The position numbers and the translations under genes are program-made. Under the pieces are notes generated by a model that was not told where the DNA came from, did not search any database, and saw nothing but the letters and a program-made list of their open reading frames with translations. Shown in pieces: positions 20,745 to 36,028 of a DNA stretch of 36,028 nt. Location: NCBI GenBank assembly GCA_023663735.1, contig JAMPGV010000025.1:1-36028 (forward strand), written 5' to 3'. Source of the stretch: Muribaculum sp. GTDB taxonomy: Bacteria > Bacillota > Clostridia > Lachnospirales > Lachnospiraceae. Within the stretch, counting starts at the first letter, position 1. Each line of letters opens with the position of its first letter.

Positions 20745-20745
20745 G

Positions 20746-20779
20746 CTTAGGCTTTTGCAAACTTAAAAGGTTCTCAAAC
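20746..20779 (-). repeat. Diverged copy of the CRISPR-repeat-like 36-mer
   Basis: The minus strand starts GTTTGAGAACCTT and continues TTAAGTTTGCAAAAGCCTAAG. It matches the copy at 34657-34692 at about 29 positions with one small gap. It lies 13 bases after the endolysin stop and just before the terminator. A short internal dyad (CTTTT/AAAAG) is present. Confidence 0.6.
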
Positions 20780-20791
20780 CCGGTGCAACTC

Positions 20792-21766
20792 TCAAACTTT
20801 GAGTGCTGTTCTGTACGATTTCTTCCCTGCTGTCCATTCACGGTCCGGCACGTGCAGACCGACAATCTGTGCCTGATACAGATAGGAAGCTTTGGCCATT
20901 CCATTGCCAAATATGGGCTTCTTATTCTTGTCAGCCTCTATTTCCCCATGGTAATACCCATATGCCTGCAACAGCCTTTCCAGCGCCGTCACGGATGCGT
21001 GATTGCGGTTCTTGGATGTGCTGATTGTCACCGTCCGCCGCAGAATGTCCTCAGAACTGCTTTCGGCATCCATCCCCAGCGACACGGCCAGCTCCCGGCG
21101 GAAGGCATCCGCCGCATCAATTACAGGATCCTGCCTCTGATGTTTTGCTTCGACGGCCACAAACCACTCATTCAGATCTACCCGCCCGGGAATGCCGTCC
21201 ACAATGCCATTACTGGAATACTGCCACCCTTCCAGCTCCTGCCCTACATTGGGCATCCTGTTAAGACTGGGAATCTCGTCATTATCCATGGCACGGGAAG
21301 AAGGATATCTGGCCATCCACCACGAATACTGCCGCAGTTCATCGGCATATTTTTTGAGATTGGCATTGTAAAATGCCTGATAACTGTATATTCCGAAGTC
21401 CAAACCTGCTGCCTGAATCACCTCGGCATAGGCGTGAATCCCATCCACCAGCGTCCTTCCGGACAGCGTTGCAAGCCTATTCCATTCCACATCCAGCCAA
21501 ACCTTTGTCTTCCGCCCTGCCAGCACTTCAATGACACGCTGTGCGTCGCCTACAAACTTCTCTCTGTTTGTGGCGTATGTATAGTTGTAAACGCCTTCTA
21601 TGGGTACTCCCTGTTGCTCAAATCCCGCCCAATGCGTCTCGAAAAGCTTGTCCGGCTGCAGATCCTTGCGAATGATCTTTAAAATTACAAAGTCCACATC
21701 CCTGCCCGCCGCAGCATAATCATTGACTGGATTATATCCGCTCAAATCGATTCCCTTAATCCTCAT
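20792..21766 (-). CDS. Phage endolysin, GH25 muramidase with C-terminal peptidoglycan-binding domain
   Basis: This 324-residue lysis enzyme would cut the MurNAc-GlcNAc bond of the host wall. The GH25 barrel (residues ~1-200) starts with KGIDLSGYN, which contains the first catalytic-face aspartate. It also shows KVWLDVEW (the acidic D-x-E pair) and the closing EGWQYSS strand. The C-terminal part (about 255-324, VTALERLLQAYGYYHGEIE) resembles the PG_binding_1 fold, and a linker of about 50 residues lies between. No signal peptide is seen, so release depends on the holin. The ATG at 21766 overlaps the holin stop by 11 bases and has AAGGA upstream. Confidence 0.93.
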   Translation of the reverse strand: MRIKGIDLSGYNPVNDYAAAGRDVDFVILKIIRKDLQPDKLFETHWAGFEQQGVPIEGVYNYTYATNREKFVGDAQRVIEVLAGRKTKVWLDVEWNRLATLSGRTLVDGIHAYAEVIQAAGLDFGIYSYQAFYNANLKKYADELRQYSWWMARYPSSRAMDNDEIPSLNRMPNVGQELEGWQYSSNGIVDGIPGRVDLNEWFVAVEAKHQRQDPVIDAADAFRRELAVSLGMDAESSSEDILRRTVTISTSKNRNHASVTALERLLQAYGYYHGEIEADKNKKPIFGNGMAKASYLYQAQIVGLHVPDREWTAGKKSYRTALKV

Positions 21767-22232
21767 ACCGCCAATCCTTCTCCTTTTCCTCTTGAACGAC
21801 ATCCGCCACTTCTTCTACTTGCTTCTTGATGTATTTTACGGCCGGTAATAGGAACGGCGGCAGCTTTACTCCTATGTCAATGATGTTTTCCAGAATGCTG
21901 ATAATCTCGTTGACCACCAGCCATACGGCTACCACTGTCGCTACGACAAAGGGCAGATCAATCTGGACACCGGCAACCTCCACCGCATACTGTATCAGGA
22001 TATCAACCCACGCCCCAATCAACACCAAAATCCACATGCACACTTTCTTGTAAATTCCCCGTATTCCTTTGTAACTGCTGACCTGTTCGGTTCTGTATGG
22101 TGCGGCGGCCAGTCCTGTTAAGTAATCGATCACATTACACCCTACCAGCAAAAAGACCGGCACCGCCAGAATCCCCAGACAGCTCATGATTGCCGAGATG
22201 ACCGCCGTCATTGTCACTTTGATTTTTTCCAT
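21756..22232 (-). CDS. Phage holin (toxin-secretion/phage-lysis holin family)
   Basis: This 158-residue membrane protein is the likely trigger of lysis. Hydrophobic segments are at about 8-40, 70-90 and 100-120. The pattern CNVIDYLTGLAAAPYRTEQVSSYKGIRGIYKKV is the signature of the Phage_holin_4 (Cph1/TcdE-like) family. The C-terminus is charged (VEEVADVVQEEKEKDW). The ATG at 22232 has GAGGG upstream; the GTG at 22247 lacks a ribosome site. It overlaps the endolysin gene. Confidence 0.93.
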   Translation of the reverse strand: MEKIKVTMTAVISAIMSCLGILAVPVFLLVGCNVIDYLTGLAAAPYRTEQVSSYKGIRGIYKKVCMWILVLIGAWVDILIQYAVEVAGVQIDLPFVVATVVAVWLVVNEIISILENIIDIGVKLPPFLLPAVKYIKKQVEEVADVVQEEKEKDWRYED

Positions 22233-29117: not shown

Positions 29118-29702
29118 TTACCCCGTTTCCTCTTTCCGCCGATTGGCATATTTCATGAACTCATCCACTCTTTTCTGCTCGCTGGCACTTAAAACCCTCT
29201 CCGGCGCTTTGATCGCGAAAATTTTCTTGGCTCTCTTTAACGCCCTCCGCTCCTGCTGTGACATCTTTGCATCGATCTCTTTCTCCCGGATATTCATAAC
29301 ACGCACAAAAGCACATTCCTCCAAATTTGCCAAAAGGCCCATGAAGACAAACCAGTGCATCCGCCTACGGCTGCTCAAATCAATGTGATACTGCTGCCAA
29401 AACGCCGCGAAAATCCTCCACTGGTCAATATCCCAGTCCATCACGATCACATTTGCTTTTTCATTCCCTGCATGGTTGTCATGGTCATATTCCGTCAGGA
29501 ACCACTTGAGCGCCTTCGCTATTTCTTCCGGAGGCGGCTGTTTCCACGGAAAAAGCAAACTCGCAGCACATGCAAACCTTTCGTATTGATTTAGTGATTC
29601 GTCTGCCATGCACTGCGATATAAGGATCCCTGTCTGGTAATCCGTGTCCATCTTTATCCCATTCCAGCTACAGGGCAGAGGATCCACCAGCACGTTAAAC
29701 AT
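29118..29702 (-). CDS. Bacteriophage Gp15-family protein (tail assembly)
   Basis: This 194-residue protein matches the phage Gp15 family (A118-type). FNVLVDPLPCSWNGIKMDTDYQTGILI at the start and DWDIDQWRIFAAFWQQYHIDL and the MHWFVFMGLLANL stretch are typical. The C-terminus is basic and helical. The ATG at 29702 has AAGGAGAA upstream and overlaps the preceding chaperone gene by eight bases. Position just before the tape measure suggests a tail assembly chaperone role. Confidence 0.88.
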   Translation of the reverse strand: MFNVLVDPLPCSWNGIKMDTDYQTGILISQCMADESLNQYERFACAASLLFPWKQPPPEEIAKALKWFLTEYDHDNHAGNEKANVIVMDWDIDQWRIFAAFWQQYHIDLSSRRRMHWFVFMGLLANLEECAFVRVMNIREKEIDAKMSQQERRALKRAKKIFAIKAPERVLSASEQKRVDEFMKYANRRKEETG

Positions 29703-30183
29703 CCGCATTCTCCTTCGCATCCTGTATCAGCTCGTCCCTGCCTCTCTGTCTGTTCCGCTTGTCATTCCTGTGTCTGCTGCGGTTCCGGGCTTCCTTCCGG
29801 TTCCTGCCATACCGCTGTTCGATTTCCCGCCGCCGTTCTCCCATGTACTTTTCCGCAATGGGATCAATCTGCCGGAAGAAATCTGCGATCAGGTACATAT
29901 TAGGCACTATATCGCCGAACACCTTCTTGCAGGATTTTTCGCCAAAGATAACGTCCATCTCTCCCATGATCTCCCGGGTGAGCCTGATGGATTCTTTCAG
30001 TTGTTCATGCTCCGTCATTTCTTTTACTTCCGGGGATTTAAGATAATCCTCCGCCGCAGAGAGCCGCTCCAGCAGACTATAAAAGCGTTCCGAAAACTGC
30101 TGATCCTCCACATTTAAAGTAATTGTATCGCCCTGTTCGTTGACCTTCACCTTGACGCCCTGCCTCAGCCTGATTTCGTCCAT
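29695..30183 (-). CDS. Putative tail assembly chaperone
   Basis: This 162-residue protein lies between the tail tube and Gp15 genes. It begins DEIRLRQGVKVKVNEQGDTITL, a small beta-rich segment, followed by helices and a very basic tail (RRREIEQRYGRNRKEARNRSRHRNDKRNRQRGR). Position and size fit the first tail assembly chaperone. The ATG at 30183 has AAGGAGG upstream. I see no convincing slippery heptamer for the G/GT-type frameshift, and the next gene has its own ribosome site. Confidence 0.7.
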   Translation of the reverse strand: MDEIRLRQGVKVKVNEQGDTITLNVEDQQFSERFYSLLERLSAAEDYLKSPEVKEMTEHEQLKESIRLTREIMGEMDVIFGEKSCKKVFGDIVPNMYLIADFFRQIDPIAEKYMGERRREIEQRYGRNRKEARNRSRHRNDKRNRQRGRDELIQDAKENADV

Positions 30184-32680: not shown

Positions 32681-33547
32681 CTATTTGCTCTGCAGGTAAA
32701 TGCCCGCGCGCTTGTTCTGGTATGCGTCCACCAGCCCGTATTTGCGATATTTCACGATGTCCGCATCTGCATTTGTGTTCTGTGCGCCCGGAATAATATT
32801 GTTTGCCACATGCTTGTCAAACTTGATGACAGCAGGTTTGTGCAGGATCATGAAGTTGATCTCTCTGCCAATCTCCGACTTTTGATAGTGTCCTAACTCC
32901 TCACCGGTGGTCTTGCCATCCAACAGGTCAATCGCAGTGTAAAACCGTGCCTGCGGCACCGTCTTCTTAACAGGAAACTTGTCAAGAATCTCCCGGGACT
33001 TGGTGGTGTCCAGACTCATGACGCTGTTTAACAGCGTGGACGTGGCATACAGCATCCGTCCCTCCTGCGGCACTTCGTCTTCATCCATCTTGGACCATGC
33101 GGCCAGCAGCGCCTCCAGAAACTGCGCAGGAGTGTCAATCGTTCCGGTATCCTTGGAGATGTTTTCCAGTGATGCCAGCGTTGCAAAAGTAAAAGCGTCC
33201 TGCTCCGGGGCAACCTTTTCCCTCATCAATGTGGCTCCAGCCATCCCGAAGGCCAGATTCCGGGACTCTTCGTTATCCATCACATCCACGGAAATTCTGG
33301 TTCCCCGGTCGTAGTTGAATTTTGCCGTCTGCCATTTGAAATCTACCGCGCCTGTGGTATATCCCGAATTTCTGTCATAATCGCCCAGACCGGTGACGCT
33401 GATCTGGGGATAGATGATCTCGTTGGCGTTTGCTCCCGCTCTTGTCATTTCGCTGGGCGAAATAAGATCCGTCGTCACGGATGCGGATCGGTACACCTCA
33501 TCCAGCAAGCTTGTGTAATTTTTTGCCAATGCAATCGTGTTGGGCAT
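32681..33547 (-). CDS. Major capsid protein
   Basis: This 288-residue protein follows the scaffold. IALAKNYTSLLDEVYRSASVTTDL, YDRNSGYTTGAVDFKWQTAKFNYDRG and FSVDVMDNEES-like segments are characteristic of the A118/TP901-like major capsid proteins of Firmicutes phages, which take the HK97 fold. AAGGAGG precedes the ATG. There is no prohead-protease site, in line with a separate scaffold. Confidence 0.92.
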   Translation of the reverse strand: MPNTIALAKNYTSLLDEVYRSASVTTDLISPSEMTRAGANANEIIYPQISVTGLGDYDRNSGYTTGAVDFKWQTAKFNYDRGTRISVDVMDNEESRNLAFGMAGATLMREKVAPEQDAFTFATLASLENISKDTGTIDTPAQFLEALLAAWSKMDEDEVPQEGRMLYATSTLLNSVMSLDTTKSREILDKFPVKKTVPQARFYTAIDLLDGKTTGEELGHYQKSEIGREINFMILHKPAVIKFDKHVANNIIPGAQNTNADADIVKYRKYGLVDAYQNKRAGIYLQSK

Positions 33548-33559
33548 TTCTTATCCTCC

Positions 33560-34135
33560 TTATTTGTCCTGTGCTGTGATCGGCGGCAGCCCCATCGCCG
33601 CCCGGAGCGCCGCATCATCTGCATCTCCGGAAGACTGCTGTACCGCTCCGATCAAATTGCCGGTTCCTACCGGATTCGGGGCCAGTTCCCCAAAGAGCAT
33701 CTTGCTGTCCTCGGCCGTGGTCAGCGTCTTGATGGCCGCCTCCACATCTGCCTTCTGGTTCTTGGAAGCTTTCAGCGTCTCCATGTCCAGAAGTGCGGCA
33801 ATCGCCTTGGGATTCACGCCCTTTGCCTCCCTGATGCAGGAGTTTACCAGTTCATTAAAATCCCTGTCCGCAATCTCCTGCGCATGTTCTGCATCCTTTC
33901 TCTCCAGCTCCTCCTTCAGCTCTTTCAACTGAGTCTGAAGCTTGTCTGGATCCACTCCCTCGAACTTTTTCAGCGCTTCCTGCGAAAGGGCGTTCTTGTC
34001 CTCCGCGGCTGTCAAGTCCTTCTTGGTTTTCTCAAGCTCTTCCTTTGCCGGATCCAGCTCCGCATGATGCAGATCCAGTACCTTGCTGATCTGCTCCTCG
34101 TCCAGTCCCAGCGCCTTCAGTTCCTCTCTCTTCAC
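33560..34135 (-). CDS. Capsid scaffolding protein (phage minor structural protein GP20 family)
   Basis: This is a 191-residue protein from the GTG at 34135, with AAAGGAGG upstream; an ATG at 34168 has no ribosome site. It is almost all helical and very charged. KREELKALGLDEEQISKVLDLHHAE, then a long coiled coil (about 30-90) and the conserved central NSCIREAKGVNPKAIAALLDME, identify the GP20 scaffold family. It guides procapsid assembly. It lies 12 bases before the major capsid gene. Confidence 0.92.
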   Translation of the reverse strand: MKREELKALGLDEEQISKVLDLHHAELDPAKEELEKTKKDLTAAEDKNALSQEALKKFEGVDPDKLQTQLKELKEELERKDAEHAQEIADRDFNELVNSCIREAKGVNPKAIAALLDMETLKASKNQKADVEAAIKTLTTAEDSKMLFGELAPNPVGTGNLIGAVQQSSGDADDAALRAAMGLPPITAQDK

Positions 34136-34199
34136 CTTGCTGCCTCCTTTTACGATGATTTGTTTCACATGGCGGTATCAGCCACAGGCAAACGCAATT

Positions 34200-34536: not shown

Positions 34537-34645
34537 CCAGATAATTATTCGGCAGGCGTCGCCTCTCCTGCATCCCTCGGGTTGCCCCTGTCATACCATC
34601 GGCGTGTGGTCGCAACGAATTTTACCACCTCGAATAATTATCTGG
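34537..34645 (-). ncRNA. Candidate structured RNA element, unclassified
   Basis: A perfect 15-bp inverted repeat (CCAGATAATTATTCG and its complement) closes a 79-base interior. Inside, on the minus strand, GTGGT/ACCAC forms one hairpin and GCAGG/CCTGC (or AGGC/GCCT) another. The loop string GTTGC of the first hairpin can pair with GCAAC in the joining strand, a possible pseudoknot. No reading frame is present. It lies about 65 bases after the small overlapping gene and 21 bases before a terminator. It does not match any RNA family I can name. A small inverted-repeat mobile element is the alternative. Confidence 0.55.
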
Positions 34646-34656
34646 ATTGAGCCTAT

Positions 34657-34692
34657 TCTTAGCACCTTTACAAACTTACAAGGTTCTCAAAC
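34657..34692 (-). repeat. CRISPR-repeat-like 36-mer, solitary copy
   Basis: The minus strand begins GTTTGAGAACCTTGTAAG and ends AAAGGTGCTAAGA. It has the length, the GTTTGAGA start and a short dyad (ACCTT/AAGGT) seen in many type II CRISPR repeats, but stands alone, without spacers. It starts about 18 bases after the stop of the small gene, following a GGTTT run. A second copy is at 20746-20779. Confidence 0.5.
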
Positions 34693-34710: not shown

Positions 34711-34908
34711 CTAAATCCCAGCCTTTCGCCTCAATTCCTCAATACGCCTATTCCTCTCCTCCCGTATATACTGAAAATCCTCCGCATTTCCGTCCAAACC
34801 AGATATATACCTATTTTCTGCTTTCAGTCGAGCCGTCAGCTTTCGTCCCTCTTCAATTTCCCACTTCATTATCGCCTGCCACTCCTGTTCAATCTGTTCC
34901 TGAGTCAC
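34711..34908 (-). CDS. Small helical protein overlapping the minor head gene
   Basis: This is a 65-residue protein from the GTG at 34908, which has GGAGG seven bases upstream. It overlaps the end of the minor head gene by 20 bases and is thus translationally coupled to it. It is almost wholly helical and acidic/basic mixed (QEQIEQEWQAIMKWEIEEG ... REERNRRIEELRRKAGI). There is no recognised family. Its tight coupling to a gene with an accessory C-terminal domain makes a partner or inhibitor role worth testing. Confidence 0.65.
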   Translation of the reverse strand: MTQEQIEQEWQAIMKWEIEEGRKLTARLKAENRYISGLDGNAEDFQYIREERNRRIEELRRKAGI

Positions 34909-36013
34909 GCAGCCACCTCCTGTATCCAATCTGCAATGATCTTGCCAGTTCTAATATTATACTGTGTCTTAAATCATACTCTGTTGCTTCAGAAAAGTAA
35001 ATAGGTTCGTCAATATCATCTGCGTTTCTTGTCAATTCATATATATACTTTTCATCTATTCCCCGCAATACCTCTAAATCATAATCAATAAATAAATTAA
35101 TATCATCATCACTAAAAGAATATTCGTTATTTGAACCTAGTGGATGATTGTGCGTGACATAAGATCCGCGAAGTCTGTCTCCCAGATCCACTCCCAGATA
35201 TACTCTGTTTAAATCCCCAAAACATTGTGTGATGGTTCCGTCTTTCTCTATGACAAGTGCATTTTCAACGGTTTCATCCACAATAAGTTTTTCATACTCC
35301 TCAAGTTTAGATTTTATGCTGTCTGGCGTTCTGTCCGTCAATATGCCAATTTCTTCCGGAGCCTTATGCACAGGAACACCATCCATTATCCCTGCTGCCA
35401 GACCACCGTTCATCCCTTCATATCGCTTCCATGCCTTGGTCTTCGTCAGATCCGACGTGCCGCTCTCATATCTCATGCGGTTCGATTTGGGTTTTATACC
35501 TGCTGCCTCGCAGAATTTCTCATATTCCTTTATCTTGCTTCTGATCTTGGCTGTGACAGTCTTCGCGTCTTCCTCCATGCCAAGGGCTTTCAGCGCCTCC
35601 CGCTCCCGCTTCAACGCCCGGACTGCGCGTTCCATGGAACGCATCCTCTGGGTTGCGGCGTAATAATCATATTCTTTCCCATCGATTACCACCGGATCAG
35701 GATCCGGCTCCGACGGCAGTATCTCCGATACGCCCTCAAACCATGCGTAATGTTTGTGTCGGCAGTTGTATCCATACAGCCCCAGCGGATCATTCTCCTG
35801 TGTACCGTCCGCACTGTAGCCGGTGGCCTCCCAGAGAGACTCTATGGACTCCTGCCCGATCCGCGCGGCTTCCTCCGCATAGTCTTTTCCCTCAATCTCT
35901 TTGATGTAATAGACCTTCCCCTGCCACTTTTTATGATTGGCGTGTCCTGTGCCGGTGTTCCGTGCGCCGATATGCTGTAACGCGGCGAAATAAAGTACCC
36001 ACCTACTGCAGTT
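34889..36013 (-). CDS. Phage minor head protein with C-terminal JAMM-like domain (5' end missing)
   Basis: The reading frame is open from the right part of the window to 34889, about 374 codons. The first part (ALQHIGARNTGTG, WQGKVYYI, GYNCRHKHYAWFEGVS) is the C-terminal core of phage minor capsid 2 / MuF-type proteins, which join the portal and stabilise the head. A linker of about 120 residues follows. An extra domain then has THNHPLG and YSFSDDD, which together fit the JAMM/MPN metal-site pattern HxH, eight residues, SxxD (35152-35108). This domain's DNA (about 34930-35330) is AT-rich compared with the rest. In the same frame a TAA stands at 36016-36014, so the 5' end is frameshifted or wrong there. 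JAMM assignment is by motif only. Confidence 0.75.
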   Translation of the reverse strand, partial: NCSRWVLYFAALQHIGARNTGTGHANHKKWQGKVYYIKEIEGKDYAEEAARIGQESIESLWEATGYSADGTQENDPLGLYGYNCRHKHYAWFEGVSEILPSEPDPDPVVIDGKEYDYYAATQRMRSMERAVRALKREREALKALGMEEDAKTVTAKIRSKIKEYEKFCEAAGIKPKSNRMRYESGTSDLTKTKAWKRYEGMNGGLAAGIMDGVPVHKAPEEIGILTDRTPDSIKSKLEEYEKLIVDETVENALVIEKDGTITQCFGDLNRVYLGVDLGDRLRGSYVTHNHPLGSNNEYSFSDDDINLFIDYDLEVLRGIDEKYIYELTRNADDIDEPIYFSEATEYDLRHSIILELARSLQIGYRRWLRDSGTD

Positions 36014-36028
36014 TTACCGCAGATTAAA

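What the first reader, a model, noticed from the sequence alone, without database searches (positions are those of the whole stretch)
34889..35330. JAMM-like domain fused to a phage minor head protein, in AT-rich DNA
The head-protein tail has an HNHP and SFSD motif with the exact JAMM spacing (HxH, 8, SxxD). Minor head (MuF) proteins are known to carry swapped C-terminal effector domains. The clear drop in GC suggests a recently gained cassette. A metal-dependent isopeptidase or effector delivered with the head would be novel.
Basis: partly seen in the sequence, partly recalled or inferred. Interest (0 to 1): 0.7.

Follow-up and report, generated by a model that had tools for sequence, protein, structure and literature searches.

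The report
JAMM-like effector on phage head protein
A virus lodged in a bacterial genome carries, on the tail of a protein that goes into its head, a swappable metal-enzyme-like domain with a tiny partner gene behind it, most likely a poison-and-antidote type module used against bacteria.

Summary
On the minus strand a prophage minor head protein (Phage_min_cap2) ends in an AT-rich domain (GC 0.38 against 0.54 upstream) with a JAMM-type metal-site pattern. In 27 aligned rows (window included) E42, H80, H82 and D96 are invariant. Profile comparison with RadC gives 75% (column shuffles at most 0.8%; positive control RadC against Prok-JAB 71%); against Prok-JAB it is no better than shuffles. No Pfam or NCBIfam match reached significance above a curated cut-off, and no PDB sequence matched. 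Eight same-genus orthologues with 62-70% identical backbones carry different C-termini (ADP-ribosyltransferase, PBECR2 RNase, this domain, four unassigned). An overlapping small gene follows in 30 of 30 loci counted (control 11 of 106), but is short or not overlapping in three remote members. Best reading: a new effector family of the MuF/minor-capsid polymorphic toxin kind, the small gene being its probable immunity partner. In passing: solitary repeats matching the host's type II-A CRISPR, candidate RNA anti-CRISPRs.

The parts
34889..36013 (-). minor head protein gene (Phage_min_cap2), 5' part missing at the contig end; last 374 codons and stop present
   Evidence: open frame and PF06152/PHROG 581 matches; contig ends at 36028; the 8 close orthologues align from residue 12 or 13 on
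34892..35389 (-).
   Evidence: conserved in the 20 rows of A2, window included; profile match to RadC; no family match above a curated cut-off seen and no PDB sequence match
35264..35266 (-). E42, candidate catalytic Glu
   Evidence: E in 27 of 27 rows; forced low-confidence hhalign alignments put it on the conserved Glu of RadC and Prok-JAB
35144..35152 (-). H80-N81-H82, candidate metal ligands H80 and H82
   Evidence: H80 and H82 in 27 of 27 rows; N81 in 28 of 28
35102..35113 (-). S93-x-x-D96, candidate Ser and metal-ligand Asp
   Evidence: S in 25 of 27, D in 27 of 27 rows; aligned with the Ser and Asp of RadC
34711..34908 (-). small overlapping gene, 65 aa from GTG with AGGAGG 7 nt upstream (72 aa if from TTG at 34929); candidate immunity or cognate partner
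   Evidence: sequence; overlapping ORF in 30 of 30 loci, control 11 of 106; partner profile's three strong hits in 382 genomes, the window's own included, lie directly behind the JAMM domain
34544..34638 (-). skipping-rope RNA (RF02924) behind the module
   Evidence: 49.2 bits against gathering 36.7; also in 2 of 13 genus loci scanned, L154 and L157; in 0 of 20 other JAMM loci scanned

Best explanation
The last ~150 residues of this prophage minor head protein are a JAMM-superfamily metal hydrolase domain that sits in an exchangeable effector slot, and the overlapping 65-aa gene is its cognate, probably inhibitory, partner. Shown here: the domain, its conserved E/HxH/SxxD set, the exchange of the slot with known toxin-type domains in close relatives, and the small gene behind it in nearly all members. 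Inferred: a metal ion (zinc by analogy) held by H80, H82 and D96 with E42 as general base; the small protein keeps the enzyme silent in the lysogen and during assembly; the enzyme acts inside bacteria, on entry with phage DNA or on release. I lean to a RadC-like nucleic-acid or nucleotide substrate (about 0.5) over a peptide or isopeptide (about 0.4).
For: Homologues by patterns and tblastn. E42, H80, H82, D96 in 27 of 27 rows. hhalign against RadC: 31% with 20 rows, 62% with 28 rows, 75% with 27 rows after leaving out L151, which had been picked by eye; column shuffles at most 1.0%, 0.76% and 0.81%; RadC against Prok-JAB as positive control 71%. Fusion partners: Phage_Mu_F in 7, Phage_min_cap2 in 2 and no Pfam match in 1 of 10 proteins scanned; free-standing in L049. 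Slot exchange: 8 same-genus orthologues at 62-70% identity: PF03496 in L152, PBECR2 in L154 and L157, this domain in L156 (C-part 99 of 186 identical), four C-parts without a Pfam match. C-part lower in GC than N-part in 9 of 9 of these, window included, and in 16 of 19 other loci, mean difference -0.065. Overlapping small ORF in 30 of 30, control 11 of 106. Partner profile: 3 strong hits, each directly behind the domain. MuF toxins Apk2 and Bxa are toxic and neutralised by adjacent genes (PMC12226406, PMC11699363, passages).
Against: No structure was computed. No JAMM model matched significantly: RadC in 1 of 20 members at E 0.16. Stray Pfam matches exist: PF12217 in 3 of 20 members, best E 3.3e-4, 20.1 bits, below its cut-off of 24. 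Prok-JAB comparison is at shuffle level. In 3 of 19 loci the domain is not poorer in GC. Of the 7 JAMM genomes only 3 gave a strong partner-profile hit, and one of those is the window itself. In the remote members L175, L176, L177 the next ORF is 48, 50 and 52 aa and in L176 does not overlap. Of the 8 slot orthologues, 5 had an overlapping ORF of 45 aa or more; L153 and L157 none, L154 only one 15 nt downstream. No toxicity or packaging data.
Confidence: 0.66

Rival explanations
1. Counter-defence enzyme: the domain is delivered with the head to strip ubiquitin-like or similar tags placed by host defence systems, and is not a toxin. The small gene would keep it from acting on the phage's own proteins.
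For: JAMM peptidases with shown function act on ubiquitin-like tails (stated in PMC5512222 and PMC3482391, passages). The slot is on a head protein, the right place to arrive early (inference).
Against: The profile match is to RadC, for which PMC5512222 argues that the groove for the ubiquitin tail is unlikely (passage). The window's own genome has no Prok-JAB match (genome 87% complete). Three of 8 slot orthologues carry known toxin-type enzymes.
Confidence: 0.12
2. Structural or maturation role: the domain is a head-maturation peptidase or an inactive JAMM fold that helps head assembly.
For: It is part of a head protein; two PHROGs that match some of these proteins are labelled head maturation protease (phrog_595 and phrog_16493).
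Against: Sister phages with 62-70% identical backbones carry unrelated enzymes in its place, so assembly should not need it; the catalytic set is kept; it also occurs free-standing. The 7 matches to those two PHROGs end before the HxH.
Confidence: 0.1
3. Convergent HNH-type nuclease or another fold rather than JAMM: the HNH string belongs elsewhere.
For: Literal HNH tripeptide; no JAMM model matches significantly.
Against: The upstream Glu and the S-x-x-D that follow are kept as in JAMM, and the profile aligns to the HNHP and S..D of RadC with shuffles far lower. None of the 12 Pfam families listed for the 20 members is an HNH endonuclease.
Confidence: 0.07

Closest known systems
MuF polymorphic toxins of temperate phages (PMC5576092; Apk2 in PMC12226406; Bxa in PMC11699363)
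   Same: Minor head protein with a variable C-terminal enzyme and, in most, a small gene directly behind; the window's slot also carries ART and PBECR2 in sister phages.
   Different: The window's backbone is Phage_min_cap2. 'JAB' and 'JAMM' do not occur in the main text of PMC5576092, nor 'JAB' in the two other papers. PMC5576092 reports a metallopeptidase domain in 20% of its 191 MuF toxins (section 7) without naming it there; its tables could not be opened, so overlap is not excluded.
Tox-JAB-1 and Tox-JAB-2 (DUF4329) toxin domains (PMC3482391, passages)
   Same: JAMM-type E, HxH, S, D set used as the toxin tip of polymorphic toxins, with immunity partners.
   Different: Listed there with T2SS, T6SS, T7SS and TcdB/TcaC delivery; Tox-JAB-2 is also listed in Caudovirales and described as secreted in Xanthomonas phages, not as a head-protein tip in the passages read. 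DUF4329 was not among the Pfam matches of the 20 members up to E 10.
RadC-like JAB domain (PF04002), also in polyvalent proteins of prophages (PMC5512222, passage)
   Same: Best profile match, HNHP and the S..D that follows.
   Different: Only 1 of 20 members matches the Pfam model, E 0.16; longer, variable loop between HxH and SxxD; an added C-terminal segment with conserved Y and R.
PBECR2 and ADP-ribosyltransferase tips of phage head proteins (PF18810, PF03496)
   Same: Occupy the same slot on 66-70% identical backbones.
   Different: Other Pfam families and chemistry.

Membership tests
JAMM/MPN metal hydrolases | Glu before the first core strand plus HxH...SxxD (pattern recalled and as listed for JAB toxins) | tested here: met
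   E42, H80, H82, D96 27/27, S93 25/27
JAMM/MPN metal hydrolases | sequence-profile relationship to an accepted JAMM family | tested here: inconclusive
   RadC 75% (shuffles at most 0.81%), Prok-JAB 2.8% (shuffles up to 3.8%); RadC HMM only E 0.16 in 1 of 20
JAMM/MPN metal hydrolases | MPN fold | not testable with these tools
   Structure prediction switched off
RadC (PF04002) | significant match to the curated model | tested here: not met
   1 of 20 members at E 0.16
MuF/minor-capsid polymorphic toxins | head-morphogenesis backbone with exchangeable C-terminal domains | tested here: met
   8 same-genus orthologues, at least three kinds of C-terminus by Pfam or family
MuF/minor-capsid polymorphic toxins | small gene directly downstream | tested here: met
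   30 of 30 loci, control 11 of 106; weaker in L175-L177
MuF/minor-capsid polymorphic toxins | C-terminal domain is toxic and the small protein neutralises it | not testable with these tools
   needs expression in a laboratory strain

The most novel reading that the evidence does not exclude
A virion-borne deconjugating metalloenzyme: the phage head carries a JAMM enzyme that, after entry, removes ubiquitin-like or other isopeptide tags that bacterial defence puts on phage or host proteins, held inactive during assembly by its small overlapping-gene partner.
Probability: 0.1. Interest if true: 0.85.

Novelty: new variant of a known kind. Interest (0 to 1): 0.52.

Why it matters
It adds an apparently unnamed JAMM-like clade, with a partner gene, to the enzymes that temperate phages hang on their heads. 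It bears on two open questions: what RadC-like JAMM domains cleave, and whether minor-capsid tips are injected. The natural series in one genus, with the same backbone and different tips, makes both directly testable.

Tried and rejected
Structure prediction was planned and could not be run. A profile search of PDB sequences found nothing up to E 10. PADLOC models found nothing up to E 1 for 6 proteins. NCBIfam's best match among 20 members was E 0.054; PHROG matches to the domain alone were weak (best E 0.0055). L050 alone had a stray match to Epsilon_antitox, E 0.0041, below its cut-off. For the solitary CRISPR repeats I looked for a self-targeting spacer: at E 1 no spacer of the 28 (27 different) matches the window over more than 12 bases. 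The 20 nt before each repeat had no match longer than 11 bases, other than to themselves, in the window or in the 30 kb around the cas genes; the rest of the genome was not searched with them. A scan of viral contigs with a repeat pattern found 0. L151's C-terminus looked like a second JAMM domain, but no relatives were found in viral contigs or phages and it has E in the D96 column; it stays an impression. An extended alignment held one wrongly framed row (L172); it was dropped and the work repeated (whose printed label says 29 rows but which used 28) and again without L151.

Rows dropped: of the 24 loci, A2 left out L017 (same protein as L009), L029 and L030 (near copies of L012 and L020), L023 (frame broken) and L025 (fragment); 19 of 24 plus the window make its 20 rows. 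The count of 30 includes L017, L029, L030 and L031 as near copies, so about 26 are independent; L048/L051 (one locus, frame broken by stops) were left out, and L156 and L170-L177 were found later and are not in it.

Full report
Where it is. The window is contig C17 of the held genome and ends at 36028. From about 20.8 kb onward it holds what I read as a prophage on the minus strand: a glycosyl hydrolase 25 lysin (20795-21802), a Gp15 protein (29118-29720), a major head protein (32681-33547), a scaffold (33560-34168) and, cut by the contig end, a minor head protein (34889-36013). A stop codon precedes that frame at the contig edge, and the 8 close orthologues align only from residue 12 or 13 on, so the edge is probably an assembly artefact.

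The observation. The frame ends in 166 residues (34892-35389) of low GC (0.376, against 0.542 for the rest of the frame and 0.548 for the window). HNHP and SFSD are there. The pattern in the window is E-x(37)-HxH-x(10)-SxxD, with a gap from H82 to S93 of 6 to 11 in the 29 loci that hold it.

Is it JAMM? For the 20 members of A2, Pfam, NCBIfam and PHROGs gave only weak matches; RadC appears once at E 0.16, and PF12217 in three members at up to 20.1 bits, under its cut-off of 24. The PDB sequence search was empty. PHROG minor-head families do extend over the region in L019 and L032, so the domain sits inside known phage proteins without a name of its own. Profile-profile comparison with a RadC alignment made here from 20 loci gives 31% with 20 rows, 62% with 28 and 75% with 27, L151 left out; reversed or column-shuffled versions stay at or below 1.0%, and two accepted JAMM families compared in the same way (RadC, Prok-JAB) give 71%. 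Against Prok-JAB it gives 1.0% (8 shuffles up to 0.4%), 2.9% (30 shuffles up to 3.0%) and 2.8% (30 up to 3.8%), so no support there. The confident part of the alignment is HNHP and the S..D that follows; forced alignments of low confidence also place E42 on the conserved Glu of both families, though the fully global one with Prok-JAB failed. I put JAMM homology at about 0.85. The fold was not tested: the predictor is switched off.

Who carries it. Relatives: 14 loci in species genomes, 8 in viral contigs, 2 significant phage records of 50,697 (a third at E 0.6 not counted), 7 of 391 genomes sampled in the class and 10 of 138 in the genus, the window's own counted in both. Ten full-length proteins scanned: 7 Phage_Mu_F, 2 Phage_min_cap2, 1 without a Pfam match, this last (L022) with weak minor-head PHROG matches. 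Free-standing forms exist: in L049 the domain gene and a small overlapping gene lie between genes that I judge by eye to be terminase and portal; L050, L176 and L177 are short proteins with MGGRGS near the start. L018 (titled Acetatifactor muris) and L171 of the window's genus are identical over 1437 bases, so the host is probably of that GTDB genus (inference).

The slot. Searching 138 genus genomes with the backbone alone found matches in 18; 8 other genomes hold orthologues at 62-70% identity. Their C-termini differ: ADP-ribosyltransferase PF03496 at 1.1e-24 (L152), PBECR2 at 1e-15 and 2.5e-10 (L154, L157), this domain (L156, 99 of 186 identical in the C-part), and four without a Pfam match at E 0.01 (L151, L153, L155, L158), of which L153 shows a HEIGH string by eye. 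In all nine proteins, window included, the C-part is poorer in GC than the N-part; in 19 other JAMM loci it is so in 16, with domain borders set by hand. This is the signature of an exchangeable effector tip, as described for MuF toxins (PMC5576092, section 7 and passages).

The partner. Behind the domain, overlapping it, lies a small gene: here 34711-34908, 65 aa from GTG with AGGAGG 7 nt upstream. All 30 loci counted have an overlapping ORF of 57-104 aa, against 11 of 106 other mechanical ATG ORFs of 150 aa or more on the same strand of the same DNA (about 26 of the 30 are independent). The proteins are charged and weakly alike, with a GLD motif in many. A profile of nine of them, the window's included, has three strong hits in 382 genomes, each directly behind a JAMM domain; hits in the other 35 genomes are at E 0.0017 or weaker. 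Against this: 4 of the 7 JAMM genomes gave no strong hit, so the partner diverges fast or differs. In L175, L176 and L177 the next ORF is 48 to 52 aa and in L176 does not overlap. Of the 8 slot orthologues 5 have an overlapping ORF of 45 aa or more; the two PBECR2 forms and L153 do not (L153's gene ends near the end of the fetched DNA). The Fusobacterium phage FNU_1P record does not annotate its small gene.

How it works. Shown: domain, motif, slot, partner. From established families: JAMM enzymes use a metal ion held by HxH and Asp with Glu as base (recalled); MuF toxins Apk2 and Bxa are toxic in bacteria and neutralised by adjacent genes (passages). Inferred: this is a metal hydrolase effector kept silent by its small partner. 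The substrate is open; PMC3482391 and PMC5512222 argue for nucleic acids in toxin JABs and RadC (passages).

Novelty. Searches for MuF, minor head protein or phage toxin with JAB or JAMM listed no title or abstract that describes this domain on a minor head protein; the library holds open-access papers only, and I read passages of five of them. PMC5576092 mentions metallopeptidase domains that it does not name in the section read, and its tables could not be opened. I file the find as a new variant of a known kind.

A second finding beside it. The 30 bases at 34663-34692 match the host's CRISPR repeat with 1 mismatch to 27 of its 29 repeats and none to one end repeat. The host has a type II-A system (Cas9, Cas1, Csn2) with a tracrRNA-like antirepeat beside cas9, recognised by eye. 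The prophage copy keeps the tracr-pairing part (duplex -25.9 kcal/mol; true repeat -25.0; 300 shuffled repeats mean -15.5, lowest -25.2) and departs at the 3' end. A second, weaker copy at 20745-20779 follows the lysin gene and shares CTAAG; its duplex energy (-19.0) is not far from shuffles (mean -15.0, sd 3.1). In the genus 4 of 138 genomes, the window's included, hold this repeat type within 3 mismatches. RNA anti-CRISPRs made of solitary repeats are known (PMC10651486, abstract and passages). Between the first copy and a terminator-like hairpin lies a skipping-rope RNA, which also follows the PBECR2 modules in L154 and L157 (2 of 13 loci) but is absent from 20 other JAMM loci scanned.

Noticed in passing
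window 34658-34692 (-): Solitary CRISPR repeat, 1 mismatch over 30 nt to 27 of the 29 repeats of the host's own type II-A array and 0 to one end repeat, just behind the small gene; keeps the tracr-pairing part. Candidate RNA anti-CRISPR.
   Followed up: partly
window 20745-20779 (-): Second repeat-like element, 2 mismatches over 23 nt, directly behind the GH25 lysin gene and before a terminator-like hairpin seen by eye; shares CTAAG with the first. Its pairing with the tracr-like RNA is weak.
   Followed up: partly
window 34544-34638 (-); L154 2540-2636; L157 2538-2621: Skipping-rope RNA (RF02924) directly behind the exchangeable head-protein tip in three prophages of the genus, but not in 20 other JAMM loci; it may mark a swap boundary.
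   Followed up: partly
L151 (C-terminal part): Sister prophage tip with an HNH and S-x-x-D at a different spacing, perhaps a second JAMM clade in the same slot; E in the D96 column, no relatives found.
   Followed up: partly
L176, L177: Free-standing MGGRGS proteins with a distant JAMM-like domain beside a similar 209-213 aa gene.
   Followed up: no
L010 4735-4992: Fusobacterium phage FNU_1P has an unannotated 85-aa ORF overlapping the end of its minor capsid gene.
   Followed up: no
G000:C23 15904-16038: Relic of a similar minor head gene with stops elsewhere in the same genome.
   Followed up: no
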